From IMG/VR virus record IMGVR_UViG_3300047998_000117, positions 1 through 23,298 of that record: a stretch of 23,298 nt of DNA; one strand, 5' to 3'. Numbering within the stretch: the stretch's first letter is position 1; every line of letters begins with the position of its first letter. Shown here one piece after another: positions 12,287-15,454 of the stretch. A program made the translations under genes and the position numbers. The DNA comes from a virus. Under the pieces are notes generated by a model. That model searched no databases and had not been told where the DNA came from. It worked only from the letters and a program-made list of their open reading frames with translations.

Positions 12287-12618
12287 TAAAACGCGAACTC
12301 TTCCTGAGTGCGCAGGCGGTACAGCTGCTGGCCCTCAATAAACGACGTTTTAATGATTGTGCGCCGCTCCCGCATGGTCTTCAGGCCAATGTCGATATGC
12401 ACGGCGTCTTGCTCGATCATGCTGCACAGGTCGCCCACAGACAGCTCGTTGTGCCTGCTCAGGCAGCGCCTGATCTCCTTGCGTAGCTTCTCCAGCGGCC
12501 ACGGCTTGTGGGCATACGCGTGCATATCATCGCGGCCAATCAGCCTGCGCTTCATGCGCGCGTTCTCGATGATCGCCAGCTCCTTCCAACGCTCTAGCGG
12601 TGTCATATGTTCCGTCAC
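12286..12618 (-). CDS. Hypothetical basic protein, 110 aa
   Basis: The preferred start is GTG 12618, which overlaps the preceding gene's TGA (GTGA) and has GGAG eight bases upstream; an ATG at 12606 is the alternative. The product is basic and helical (ERWKELAIIENARMKRRLIGRDD, LRKEIRRCLSRHNELSVGDLCSMI), with a C-terminal RRTIIKTSFIEGQQLYRLRT. The middle part (SRHNELSVGDLCSMIEQDAVHIDIGLKTMRERRTI) could form a winged-helix-like DNA-binding unit, but this is a weak impression. Function unknown. Confidence 0.6.
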   Translation of the reverse strand: MTEHMTPLERWKELAIIENARMKRRLIGRDDMHAYAHKPWPLEKLRKEIRRCLSRHNELSVGDLCSMIEQDAVHIDIGLKTMRERRTIIKTSFIEGQQLYRLRTQEEFAF

Positions 12619-12845
12619 AGCCGCTTCTCCAGCATCTCGCAAAGCGCCATGATCTCTTCGGCGCGCTGCTTGATCGTCAGGCGCTCGGGGCCACGCCCCG
12701 CGTCCATACGCATGATGTCTGCCTTGCGCCTGATCGACATGACCAGCATCAGCGGCGTTGGCTGCGTCGGCGTGCTGCTATCCTCGTCGATATGCGCGCC
12801 CACGCTGGCGCTGTTTTCCAGTTTCGATAAATCCCATTTAGCCAT
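12615..12845 (-). CDS. Small hypothetical protein, 76 aa
   Basis: The start at ATG 12845 (MAKWDLSKLENSASVGAHID) is chosen over longer in-frame Mets because an excellent GGAGAA lies five bases ahead. The N-terminal half is polar with a Thr/Pro-rich linker (EDSSTPTQPTPLML); the C-terminal half is helical and charged (PERLTIKQRAEEIMALCEMLEKRL). No known domain is seen. It overlaps the upstream gene by 8 bp and the downstream one by 4 bp, so it is a tightly coupled operon member. Confidence 0.62.
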   Translation of the reverse strand: MAKWDLSKLENSASVGAHIDEDSSTPTQPTPLMLVMSIRRKADIMRMDAGRGPERLTIKQRAEEIMALCEMLEKRL

Positions 12846-13014
12846 TGTTATTCTCCTGTGTTGGCTTGCGCTTAGGGCGAACGGTGTTTGATTTTTCTCG
12901 CTGGATAACGCATTGCACCGGCCCGTATAAATTTGCCTCATATTTTTCAATAAAGTCTGCGCATTCATATGGCGATGAAAATACCATCAAGGCAACCCAT
13001 GTTGTTTTAATCAT
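12838..13014 (-). CDS. Small hypothetical protein, 58 aa
   Basis: The start at ATG 13014 (MIKTTWVALMVFSSPYECAD) overlaps the upstream TGA as ATGA and has GGAAAG upstream. The protein has a mildly hydrophobic N-terminus, then FIEKYEANLYGPVQCVIQ and a basic Asn-rich tail (RPKRKPTQENNNG). It directly follows the Tas-like gene and is coupled to it. Function unknown. It could be an accessory of the array system only by position. Confidence 0.55.
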   Translation of the reverse strand: MIKTTWVALMVFSSPYECADFIEKYEANLYGPVQCVIQREKSNTVRPKRKPTQENNNG

Positions 13015-13715
13015 GCTGCTTTCCATTCTACAAATAAATCACGCACCAGCTTTTTTGTCATGTATCTCAATGCACGATTATGCGCGTGGCCATCGCTATC
13101 TACACGCTCGCGCTCAAGCGTTTTGCGAGTGTCATATATCCTGCGATACGGGCCAGCGTTTTCTTCTTTACCTTGGCTCTTGAGCAGGCTGTCGCCAATC
13201 GTCCAGAATACCGAATGACGTGACGGGCTATATCCATGCGCCAGTGCCATCTCCGCATTGCTGCATTTACGCTGCCTCTGGCCATCTATCACGGCAAGCC
13301 CAGCGCGCTTGTATATGCCGTCAAGCTCCTTTTCATATTCCATGAAGTCGCCTACCTCGCCAACAATGCCAGCCAAGCCCAGATGACCAAAGCCTTTCAC
13401 CTTATCGACAAACGTTGATACTGGCAGCTCCTTTGCCAAACCAACAAGCCACTTCTCAAACTCGGCGCGGCTTTCTAAGAGCGGCTGCCTTGCCTCAAAT
13501 AGTGGCTTTGTGGCGGCATATTCGTCCATTGTGCCTTCGCCCTTCTTCAGTTGAGCGAATAGCTTATTGGCTTCCTTGATGTCGCCGTCACGAAAGCTGC
13601 GGCAGATTGCCTTAATCTGCAAAACGAGCTTTGCTTCAGCGCGAACCATGTTCTGCCTGTTGCGCCAAGTCAGATATATCTTGGCAATGGTTGGGTCTTC
13701 GTAACGTTTATCCAT
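13011..13715 (-). CDS. Tas-like protein (Nop/IS110-C-terminal-like RNA-binding), 234 aa
   Basis: The ATG at 13715 has AAGGAGAT five bases upstream; the longer in-frame reading to 13835 would run into the array and is rejected. Residues 1-100 are helical and charged. Then come VKGFGHLGLAGIVGEVGDF (106-124) and RAGLAVIDGQRQR (137-149), a helix-hairpin-helix layout like the C-terminal (Transposase_20) part of IS110-family transposases, GYSPSRHSVFWTIGDSL (161-177), GPYRRIYDTRK (188-198), and GHAHNRALRYMTKKLVRDLFVEW (209-231), which resembles the RNA-binding end of Nop domains. No RuvC/DEDD or HNH motif is visible. With a structured guide-like array immediately upstream on the same strand, it fits Tas proteins of TIGR-Tas systems, of the nuclease-less type. 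Known: Tas proteins bind tigRNAs for DNA targeting. Inferred: that this one does. Confidence 0.78.
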   Translation of the reverse strand: MDKRYEDPTIAKIYLTWRNRQNMVRAEAKLVLQIKAICRSFRDGDIKEANKLFAQLKKGEGTMDEYAATKPLFEARQPLLESRAEFEKWLVGLAKELPVSTFVDKVKGFGHLGLAGIVGEVGDFMEYEKELDGIYKRAGLAVIDGQRQRKCSNAEMALAHGYSPSRHSVFWTIGDSLLKSQGKEENAGPYRRIYDTRKTLERERVDSDGHAHNRALRYMTKKLVRDLFVEWKAA

Positions 13716-13734: not shown

Positions 13735-14230
13735 TGCGAGGCGAAGCGTACCTGACATTTCTGCGTTTTTGGAGTGGCCTCTGGTTGTTGGTGCGCCAGT
13801 AGAGTGGCATCTCTGCGCGTGTTGAGCGGCACCAAATAAAGCGGGAGCGATTTATGAATAGCATTGCTGCGTCATTTGGATGGCTCCCTGTTGTAAGGTG
13901 GGGGTGCATCTTCGTAGGCATTCCTGCGGGCTATTCACGACCCCCTGTTGTAAGGTGGGGGCGTAATATGCATGGCATTTCTGCGATCGATACTTGGCCC
14001 CCTTTTGAATGGTTGGGAAGGGTGATAGCTAATCGGCATTGCTGCATGGCGCTCGTGACCCTTCCCATTGGCGCGGCAACTGGTTGGCATTTCTGCGCAC
14101 CTGTAGTGGCACCAAAATAAGGCGGGGGCGCTGCTCTGGTGGCATTTCTGCGCCGCTCCCACGGCCCCCTGTTGTAAGGTGGGGGCGTCATATTGTTGGC
14201 ATTTCTGCGATCGATGCGTGACCCCCTGTT
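13735..14230 (-). repeat. Tandem interspaced guide RNA (TIGR)-like array
   Basis: Nine copies of a 12-nt edge element (CGCAGAAATGCC in transcript sense) start on the + strand at 13754, 13806, 13860, 13917, 13974, 14035, 14086, 14141 and 14198, so the period is 51-61 bp. Between edges lies a loop element, most often CCCCC-ACCTTACAACA-GGGGG (a hairpin), bounded by CR on one side and YCR on the other. The pieces between edge and loop are variable and about 9 nt long. Transcript-order spacers: CGCATCGAT, ACAATATGA, TGGGAGCGG, CCAGAGCAG, CTACAGGTG, ACCAGTTGC, CGAGCGCCA, ATTAGCTAT, AGTATCGAT, TGCATATTA, TGAATAGCC, ACGAAGATG, TCCAAATGA, TTCATAAAT, CTCAACACG, CTCTACTGG, CTCCAAAAA, GGTACGCTT. The array starts just after the stop of the 176-aa gene and ends about 20 bp before the Tas-like start codon. 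No separate promoter is evident, so it is probably transcribed with the operon. Confidence 0.8.
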
Positions 14231-14235
14231 AAACA

Positions 14236-14766
14236 TTATTCTACCAAAGCCTGCTCATACTCAGCTTTGACTTCGCTGATATTCCAGACATCTCTGACGA
14301 CTTTATCATCAGTGACGCGAGCCTTGATGGCAGAATAGAAGCTGCGCTGCCCTTCATGGTGCTTGCTGCGGGATGTCTCGTGCATAATCGCCTGCTCAAG
14401 ATCCTCGCTTGTTGCATCGCCCAAGCAGATGCCGGTATTGGGCAACAGCCAACGCTCAAACATATCCTTGGCATATGCGGGTGCCATGTTCTTCAGCGAC
14501 ACGGCTGGCGTTGACGTCTCGCCCTTGCTTAGAACAGTTTGATGCGCTGCACGCTTAAATCGCGCGCGGTAGCCTCTGGGCTGCGCAACAACATCCAAAT
14601 ATGCGATGCGCTCCAAATGGCGGCGTGTAGCCTCTTCGCGCAAAACATCATCTTGCTGAAGCATAGCCAGATATTTCTCTGATGCTTCCTTTGCGCTGCC
14701 TGATCCTTCCCAAGCCTTTTCCACGGCCTCGGATACAATCGAAATAATATTTTCCTGCTTAGTCAT
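14236..14766 (-). CDS. Hypothetical protein upstream of the array, 176 aa
   Basis: The ATG at 14766 (MTKQENIISIVSEAVEKAW) overlaps the upstream TGA (TGATG) with AAGGA six bases ahead; GTG 14769 is a less well spaced alternative. The protein is helical and charged throughout, with one conserved-looking middle (YLDVVAQPRGYRARFKRAAHQTVLS) and WLLPNTGICLGDATSEDLEQAIMHETSRSKHHEGQRSFYSAIK. I do not recognise a family. It is unlike any nuclease I know. Its position just before the array could mean an accessory role, but it may equally be an unrelated early phage protein. Confidence 0.6.
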   Translation of the reverse strand: MTKQENIISIVSEAVEKAWEGSGSAKEASEKYLAMLQQDDVLREEATRRHLERIAYLDVVAQPRGYRARFKRAAHQTVLSKGETSTPAVSLKNMAPAYAKDMFERWLLPNTGICLGDATSEDLEQAIMHETSRSKHHEGQRSFYSAIKARVTDDKVVRDVWNISEVKAEYEQALVE

Positions 14767-14915
14767 CACTCTTCCTTTTCTTCATTGCGCCAGTCGAAGT
14801 CGTCTTCGTCTTGGCATTCTGGGCAGCGCACCGTTGTCCACGCGTCGCTGTCCGGCGTGTTGACGAAACGCGGCAACTCGATGAAGCCGGTTCCGTCGCA
14901 AGTCGTGCAGATCAT
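14766..14915 (-). CDS. Small zinc-ribbon protein, 49 aa
   Basis: The start at ATG 14915 overlaps the upstream stop as ATGA, and the longer in-frame reading to 14996 is rejected. Two CxxC pairs are visible: CTTCDGTGFIEL near the N-terminus (DnaJ-type CxxCxGxG) and CPECQDEDD near residue 36. They would bind one zinc ion and form a ribbon. The C-terminus is highly acidic (DDFDWRNEEKEE). Proteins of this type often mediate protein or nucleic-acid contacts; the partner is unknown. Confidence 0.65.
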   Translation of the reverse strand: MICTTCDGTGFIELPRFVNTPDSDAWTTVRCPECQDEDDFDWRNEEKEE

Positions 14916-15454
14916 TTGTACACATCCGCGTTGATGCTCCACAGCACCAAGGTTGCGCGCTGCTGGTTTGCGCGCTGGTTTACATGCGCTTTGCATATCT
15001 CGCCGCGTGCGTGCATGTTTTCCAGGTGCTGCGAAAGCTTGCGCGTCTCAACGCCAACGACGTCAGCGATGTCTGCCGTCTCGCAATACGTCACGTCGGC
15101 GCTCTGTAAGAACGCAATGATCTTCCGCTGGACGTCAGCCCAATCAATCGGCTCAGGCTCCTCGGTGGGCGCCTGAACGGCCTCTGCTGGCGCGTCAGTC
15201 GCCAAGCCCAGCACGTCACGCGCTGGGCGTCGTTCCTGAACATAGGCGGCAACCCACGGCGTGCGCTCACGGTTCTCTTCGATGGCGTTCTGCACGATGA
15301 TGCCTTTGCAGATGTCATCAAGGTTTGCGTGCGCCTGCTGCAACAAGCGCGGCGAAATATGTACGCTCTCGCCATTGTCAGTACGCACGCCAAAGCCTGT
15401 GCCGCTATCTGTGATGTGCGTGATTAGAAATTCATGTGTATGCGTAAGGTTCAT
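14912..15454 (-). CDS. OB-like plus winged-helix DNA-binding protein, 180 aa
   Basis: The start has GGAG about nine bases before ATG 15454. Residues about 8-55 (FLITHITDSGTGFGVRTDNGESVHISPRLL ... CKGIIVQNA) have the look of a small OB/cold-shock-like barrel. After a Pro/Glu/Ala-rich linker (about 82-102), residues about 105-165 (WADVQRKIIAFLQSADVTYCETADIADVVGVETRKLSQHLENMHARGEICKA) read as a winged helix. This suggests a nucleic-acid-binding, perhaps regulatory, protein acting early. Both domain calls are by eye and should be treated as moderate. It overlaps the next gene by 4 bp. Confidence 0.6.
   Translation of the reverse strand: MNLTHTHEFLITHITDSGTGFGVRTDNGESVHISPRLLQQAHANLDDICKGIIVQNAIEENRERTPWVAAYVQERRPARDVLGLATDAPAEAVQAPTEEPEPIDWADVQRKIIAFLQSADVTYCETADIADVVGVETRKLSQHLENMHARGEICKAHVNQRANQQRATLVLWSINADVYK

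What the first reader, a model, noticed from the sequence alone, without database searches (positions are those of the whole stretch)
13735..14230. Array architecture: fixed edges, several loop classes, 18 spacers of 9 nt
When the units are aligned, the 12-nt edge (13 nt with a mostly conserved flanking T) is fixed, and the bases bordering the loop are conserved (YGR and YG on the + strand). What remains is 9 nt on each side. Loops fall into classes: four hairpin loops with TGTTGTAAGGT, two with CACCAAA(A)TAA (in the units after 13806 and 14086), and three divergent ones. Loop classes within one array are unusual and could mark ancestry or different processing of units.
Basis: seen in the sequence. 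Interest (0 to 1): 0.8.

Follow-up and report, generated by a model that had tools for sequence, protein, structure and literature searches.

The report
Phage array of paired DNA-targeting guides
A marine phage carries nine tandem small-RNA units, each holding two 9-letter guides, next to the gene of a nuclease-free TIGR-Tas (TasA) protein; the system is of a recently described kind, but about 40 natural arrays show how its guides change while everything around them stays fixed.

Summary
In detail: nine units and 18 spacers of 9 nt lie at 13738-14226, directly upstream of a minus-strand gene (13014-13715) that encodes a solo Nop-domain protein. By sequence it is a TIGR-Tas protein: NCBIfam TIGR_Tas E=5e-22 (below the curated cut-off), PDB TasR 4e-13, TasH 2e-3. 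The array is a stem-loop TIGR array with TasA, as described by Faure et al. 2025 (PMC12045711). The RNA is read from the minus strand. The stems pair across each unit, not locally (173 of 179 units against 50 of 157 local pairings), with strong covariation; so the '12-nt edge' is the internal loop repeat and the 'loop classes' are linkers plus outer stem arms. No target was found: no enrichment in own and related phage DNA, and database hits at chance level or low complexity. New details: slot-specific stems, a linked 177-aa partner gene, and an optional cassette at a site where siblings carry homing-type endonucleases. A new member of a known kind.

The parts
13014..13715 (-). tasA: 234-aa solo Nop-domain TIGR-associated protein, no nuclease domain
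   Evidence: NCBIfam NF052498 TIGR_Tas E=5.3e-22 (78.8 bits, cut-off 100) over profile 16-215, IS110 E=3e-4; PDB 9mty_A E=4.1e-13 and TasH 21kl E=1.7e-3; phrog_4285 transposase 1.8e-14
13738..14226 (-). stem-loop TIGR array, nine units, transcribed strand inferred to be minus
14181..14226 (-). unit 1: stem GGGGG/CCCCC; spacer A 14210-14218 CGCATCGAT; loop repeat 14197-14209; spacer B 14188-14196 ACAATATGA
14124..14169 (-). unit 2: stem GGGGG/CCCCC; A 14153-14161 TGGGAGCGG; loop repeat 14140-14152; B 14131-14139 CCAGAGCAG
14068..14115 (-). unit 3: stem TTGGTG/CGCCAA (one U-G pair); A 14098-14106 CTACAGGTG; loop repeat 14085-14097; B 14076-14084 ACCAGTTGC
14014..14067 (-). unit 4: stem TGGGAAGGG/CCCTTCCCA (9 bp, full pairing only across the unit); A 14047-14055 CGAGCGCCA; loop repeat 14034-14046; B 14025-14033 ATTAGCTAT
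13957..14002 (-). unit 5: stem GGGGG/CCCCC; A 13986-13994 AGTATCGAT; loop repeat 13973-13985; B 13964-13972 TGCATATTA
13900..13945 (-). unit 6: stem GGGGG/CCCCC; A 13929-13937 TGAATAGCC; loop repeat 13916-13928; B 13907-13915 ACGAAGATG
13843..13888 (-). unit 7: stem GGGAG/CTCCC; A 13872-13880 TCCAAATGA; loop repeat 13859-13871; B 13850-13858 TTCATAAAT
13788..13835 (-). unit 8: stem TTGGTG/CACCAA; A 13818-13826 CTCAACACG; loop repeat 13805-13817; B 13796-13804 CTCTACTGG
13738..13781 (-). unit 9: stem GAGG/CCTC; A 13766-13774 CTCCAAAAA; loop repeat 13753-13765; B 13744-13752 GGTACGCTT
   Evidence: local pairing rejected
14236..14769 (-). orf177: upstream gene of unknown family, stop codon just before the array; co-occurs with the marine tasA clade; candidate partner gene
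   Evidence: 57 loci with both; exceptions are contigs cut off near the array, or distant relatives; no convincing family or PDB match

Best explanation
A TIGR-Tas system of the stem-loop kind. A minus-strand transcript through the array folds into nine stem-bounded units. Each unit is a small RNA of the form stem - box C (YCR) - spacer A - loop repeat with its own boxes D and C (CGCAGAAATGCCA) - spacer B - box D (CR) - stem. A TasA dimer is inferred to bind each processed tigRNA by its two box C/D pairs and to place spacer A on one strand and spacer B on the other strand of a DNA site of about 18 bp. As TasA has no nuclease, the most likely effect is binding, bending and blocking of foreign DNA (competing phages or other mobile elements), not cutting. 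Shown here: anatomy, covariation, the homology of TasA, fast guide change in a fixed scaffold, an optional cassette. Inferred: transcription, processing, DNA binding, and the role against competitors. The confidence given is for identity and RNP mechanism; for the role against competitors alone it is about 0.5.
For: TasA matches TIGR-Tas and TasR/TasH by sequence. The array directly precedes tasA on the same strand. Across-unit stems of at least 4 bp in 173 of 179 units found without a stem requirement, against 50 of 157 for local hairpins. On 40 ungapped units, 95.6% of cells pair and 63 cells are changed on both sides, against 17.3 in shuffles (0 of 500 reach it); this includes the box C/D pair (columns 10-45) and the loop-repeat pair (columns 23-32). 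The non-Watson-Crick standard pairs are U-G when the minus strand is read as RNA. Spacer differences 0.48 per site, scaffold 0.054, TasA 98-100% identical at protein level within the window clade. Across-unit stem, box C/D motifs, dual 9-nt spacers and solo Nop protein match Faure et al.. The half-site TGGGAGCCA occurs as spacer A in some units and as spacer B in others, as expected if the two halves are equivalent.
Against: No target was found: no enrichment of A+rcB sites in own, related or sister phage DNA, and IMG/VR hits are chance-level or low complexity. The score to NCBIfam TIGR_Tas is below its curated cut-off. The AlphaFold model was poor (pLDDT 66) and the fold search inconclusive. 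No RNA data exist. No sigma-70-like promoter was found upstream of the array.
Confidence: 0.87

Rival explanations
1. The array and TasA regulate genes of the phage's host (or of the phage itself) by guided DNA binding, as a programmable repressor used during infection.
For: TasA has no nuclease domain; some spacer pairs are shared by many arrays (for example CTACAGGTG/ACCAGTTGC in five); in the sister clade one unit is nearly invariant.
Against: 115 distinct spacer pairs in 22 arrays are more than a fixed host regulon would need; no site with 0-1 mismatch and gap 0 in own or related phage genomes. Host not known, so host genomes were not tested.
Confidence: 0.25
2. TasA-tigRNA acts on RNA, like archaeal box C/D RNPs, and not on DNA.
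For: Nop domain, box C/D layout and stem-bounded units resemble box C/D guide RNAs.
Against: No fibrillarin or L7Ae relative among the neighbour proteins scanned; characterised Tas proteins bind DNA with the two spacers on opposite strands, and TasR had no activity on RNA.
Confidence: 0.08
3. A repeat array without guide function (for example terminators, attachment or packaging sites); spacers drift neutrally.
For: Some spacer families differ by few substitutions, with transitions over transversions 52:24 and no codon periodicity, as drift would also give.
Against: The scaffold is kept at 5% divergence with compensatory changes while spacers reach 48%; spacer length is almost always exactly 9; always next to a TIGR-Tas protein.
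Confidence: 0.05

Closest known systems
TIGR-TasA stem-loop arrays (Faure et al. 2025, PMC12045711; Peromyscus gut metagenome locus)
   Same: Solo Nop protein without nuclease; units bounded by palindromic stems of variable sequence; two spacers of 8-12 nt flanked by box C/D motifs; phage or metagenome setting.
   Different: Here the internal loop repeat is a conserved 13-mer, as in dual-repeat arrays (the paper mentions such arrays as possible intermediates); stem sequence is fixed by position in the array; box D is CR rather than UG; an upstream 177-aa partner gene.
TIGR-TasR / TasH dual-repeat arrays
   Same: 9-nt spacers, box C CCA, loop repeat with a covarying C/D pair, Nop domain homologous by sequence.
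   Different: No RuvC or HNH domain; edge repeats replaced by stems and linkers.
IS110 transposases with bridge RNA
   Same: Distant Nop-domain similarity (NCBIfam transpos_IS110 E=3e-4).
   Different: No transposase catalytic domain, no mobile element ends, a many-unit array instead of one bridge RNA.
CRISPR arrays
   Same: Variable spacers in a conserved scaffold next to an effector gene.
   Different: Two repeat types, paired 9-nt spacers, no Cas proteins and no adaptation genes near the array.

Membership tests
TIGR-Tas system | Tas protein with Nop domain related to TIGR-Tas proteins | tested here: met
   NCBIfam NF052498 E=5.3e-22 over most of the profile, though 78.8 bits is under the curated 100; PDB TasR 9mty E=4.1e-13
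TIGR-Tas system | adjacent array with two spacers of 8-12 nt per unit, interspaced by two conserved elements | tested here: met
[quoted passage not shown]
   YCR and CR at both elements; pair columns 10-45 and 23-32 covary
TIGR-Tas system | spacers vary between loci | tested here: met
TIGR-Tas system | transcription and processing to tigRNA bound by Tas | not testable with these tools
   needs RNA sequencing or pull-down
TIGR-Tas system | spacers A and B pair with opposite strands of one DNA site | tested here: inconclusive
   no enriched A+rcB sites in 1.48 million unique 20-mers or in IMG/VR scans
TIGR stem-loop array subtype | palindromic stems bound each unit in place of edge repeats | tested here: met
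TasA subtype | no nuclease domain | tested here: met
   234 aa, TIGR_Tas profile covers residues 46-232; no other domain in Pfam or PHROGs
CRISPR-Cas | Cas effector or adaptation proteins near the array | tested here: not met
   neighbour proteins scanned in Pfam, PHROGs, NCBIfam and PADLOC without Cas matches (only weak CARF-like hits, best E=0.0026, in window 14912-15454)
IS110 bridge RNA | DEDD transposase domain fused to the Nop domain | tested here: not met
   only the Nop part matches

The most novel reading that the evidence does not exclude
These marine podophages carry a three-part TIGR cassette (orf177, slot-ordered stem-loop array, tasA) that takes the place of homing-type endonucleases at one variable genome site, with orf177 as a new Tas partner (effector or guide-replacement factor) and guides exchanged unit by unit between phages through slot-specific stems; the array would then be a natural system for studying how TIGR guides are gained.
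Probability: 0.3. Interest if true: 0.75.

Novelty: new member of a known kind. Interest (0 to 1): 0.5.

Why it matters
How TIGR arrays gain and change guides, and what they target in nature, are stated as open by their discoverers. This phage group gives about 40 arrays, many on nearly identical backgrounds, and sibling phages with and without the cassette, so guide turnover, recombination between units and the role of a linked partner gene become directly testable. It also gives independent covariation evidence for the stem-loop tigRNA model and for box C/D pairing in a nuclease-free Tas system.

Tried and rejected
1) Codon-like variation between related spacers (apparent LNTPVL, PQGTKR motifs): tested, no 3-periodicity (p 0.085-0.96 over thresholds and gaps); dropped. 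2) Tail-sheath hits for CTCAACACKCCAGTRSWG: the pattern covers 16 words, and 13 loci are about what a rough estimate of chance gives for a collection of this size (the size is my estimate); most are one abundant prophage gene. 3) CTACAGGTG-NN-GCAACTGGT, 33 contigs, 31 with gap 2: low-complexity ATGxATG / APVxAPV coding repeats in unrelated phages, gap forced by codon phase. 4) GAAGTGACC-NN-CAATCCCCG, 8 contigs with gap 2: one small lipoprotein gene family, so one independent event; kept only as a lead. 5) Self-targets and related-phage targets: two pairs with 1 mismatch and gap 2 in sister phages, not significant over nine tests. 6) Local hairpins with TGTTGTAAGGT loops: rejected by pairing statistics. 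7) Rfam: no match. 8) Structure models of TasA and orf177: low confidence, fold searches not informative. 9) A first alignment of units with wrong offsets was replaced. 10) Searches of host genomes by pattern failed because no host handle was at hand.

Full report
What is there. The window is a 23.3-kb virus record (IMG/VR) with a podovirus-like portal and major head protein (nearest portal in Octadecabacter Antarctic DB virus 2, 46.5%). At 13738-14226, between two minus-strand genes (orf177, 14236-14769, and tasA, 13014-13715), lie nine tandem units with 18 spacers of 9 nt. The marine setting is my inference from related phages and contig sources.

Anatomy. Read on the minus strand, a unit is: stem arm, YCR, spacer A (9), CGCAGAAATGCCA, spacer B (9), CR, stem arm, linker. 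That pairing is good only where neighbouring units happen to have matching stems (mostly GGGGG/CCCCC). Where stems differ, arms pair only across their own unit: GGGAAGGG with CCCTTCCC (unit 4), GGGAG with CTCCC (unit 7), TTGGTG with CACCAA (unit 8). Units located by the loop repeat alone, without any stem requirement, give 173 of 179 own stems of 4 bp or more against 50 of 157 local pairings. On 40 distinct units from 12 sources, aligned without gaps, the structure pairs in 95.6% of cells, with 63 cells changed on both sides against 17.3 in shuffles, 0 of 500 reaching it, and no slid version coming near. The 40 units were chosen for stem diversity and had passed a parser that asks for a 4-bp stem, so the percentage paired in the stem is favoured by selection; the box pair (columns 10-45) and the loop-repeat pair (23-32) were not selected for and also covary. 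The wobble pairs are U-G on the minus strand, which supports that strand as the RNA.

What it is. The TasA protein matches NCBIfam TIGR_Tas (E=5.3e-22, 78.8 bits against a cut-off of 100), the solved TasR (9mty, E=4.1e-13; the 331-aa length equals the TaTasR of the paper) and TasH (21kl, E=1.7e-3), and weakly IS110. It has no nuclease domain. Faure et al. (PMC12045711) describe this kind: stem-loop TIGR arrays with TasA, some with conserved loop-repeat-like sequence, perhaps intermediate to dual-repeat arrays.

Relatives. Forty arrays (331 units, 184 distinct pairs of 9/9 length) were read from IMG/VR contigs; some contigs hold identical arrays. In the window clade TasA is 98-100% identical and stem classes keep their order. 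In slots that can be matched, spacers differ at about 0.48 per site and the scaffold at 0.05-0.06 in all but the closest pairs, while tasA differs from the window at 2.4-4.7% of bases. Sharing is slot by slot: the window shares unit 3 with L003, L011, L015 and L018 but its last unit with L002, L005 and L013, as recombination between arrays would give. Spacers A and B mostly travel together, and a spacer pair stays with its stem class apart from single-base changes, so the unit seems to be the module that moves. TGGGAGCCA occurs as spacer A in some units and as spacer B in others, which fits equivalent halves.

Cassette. Among phages whose portal is 96-100% identical, some lack tasA, array and orf177 together while keeping the flanking genes (L038, L041, L043, L048, L054, L061, L078, L079). 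In those the same site holds an HNH-like protein (L038, L041), a protein with an endonuclease VII-like pattern (L043), other small genes, or nothing (L048) (the endonuclease assignments rest on motifs read by eye). Orf177 is found with marine tasA in 57 loci; exceptions are contigs cut off near the array and distant homologues in rhizobia and L153 (several loci come from the same contigs, so 57 is not a count of independent phages). Orf177 is less conserved between clades (48-56%) than TasA (81-84%). It has no convincing family.

Targets. All pairs were searched as A plus reverse-complement B with gaps 0-2, the geometry that fits the paper's 8-nt 3' overhangs, in own, related and sister phage DNA, with re-paired spacers as control. 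There is no convincing excess (the lowest p of 18 comparisons is 0.017). Scans of IMG/VR with five spacer-pair patterns gave chance-level or low-complexity hits. An early impression of codon-like variation failed its test. Targets remain unknown; the host is also unknown.

Judgement. Membership in TIGR-Tas is close to certain on sequence and architecture. RNA processing and DNA targeting are inferred from characterised relatives. A role against competing mobile elements is the best guess, because guides are many and change fast and because the cassette sits where siblings carry homing-type endonucleases, but it is not shown.

Noticed in passing
L153 390-735: A distant TasA locus (46% identity; NCBIfam TIGR_Tas E=8e-25) whose stem-loop array (loop repeat TGCCGAAAGGCCA near 439, 641, 706; stems GAAGAAGCG/CGCTTCTTC and GGGAAGGC/GCCTTCCC) overlaps the 5' part of the tasA open frame; several frames are open there, so real coding overlap is not shown.
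   Followed up: partly
L037 5341-5908 and 6810-6990; L118 9591-9850 and 10818-10871: Rhizobium phage RHph_X2_25 and a Rhizobium esperanzae contig carry a TasA homologue with strong inverted repeats of unit-like span on both sides, apparently stem-loop arrays without a conserved loop repeat; one lies inside the annotated tasA gene.
   Followed up: partly
window 14236-14769: orf177, a protein of unknown family linked to marine tasA in all loci not cut off near the array; candidate new partner of TasA.
   Followed up: partly
L038, L041, L043, L048 between the homologues of window 14766-14996 and 12615-12968: The cassette site is variable among near-identical phages: HNH-like protein, endonuclease VII-like protein, other genes or nothing.
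   Followed up: partly
L156-L163: Eight contigs hold an exact match, gap 2, to the sister-clade spacer pair GAAGTGACC/CGGGGATTG in one small lipoprotein gene; one independent event, possibly chance, worth a check when the host is known.
   Followed up: partly
spacers of the window clade and its relatives (loci L002-L023): Spacer base composition is uneven by position (T at positions 1-2 and A at 4-6 of spacer A; C at 7 of spacer B), not corrected for relatedness.
   Followed up: no
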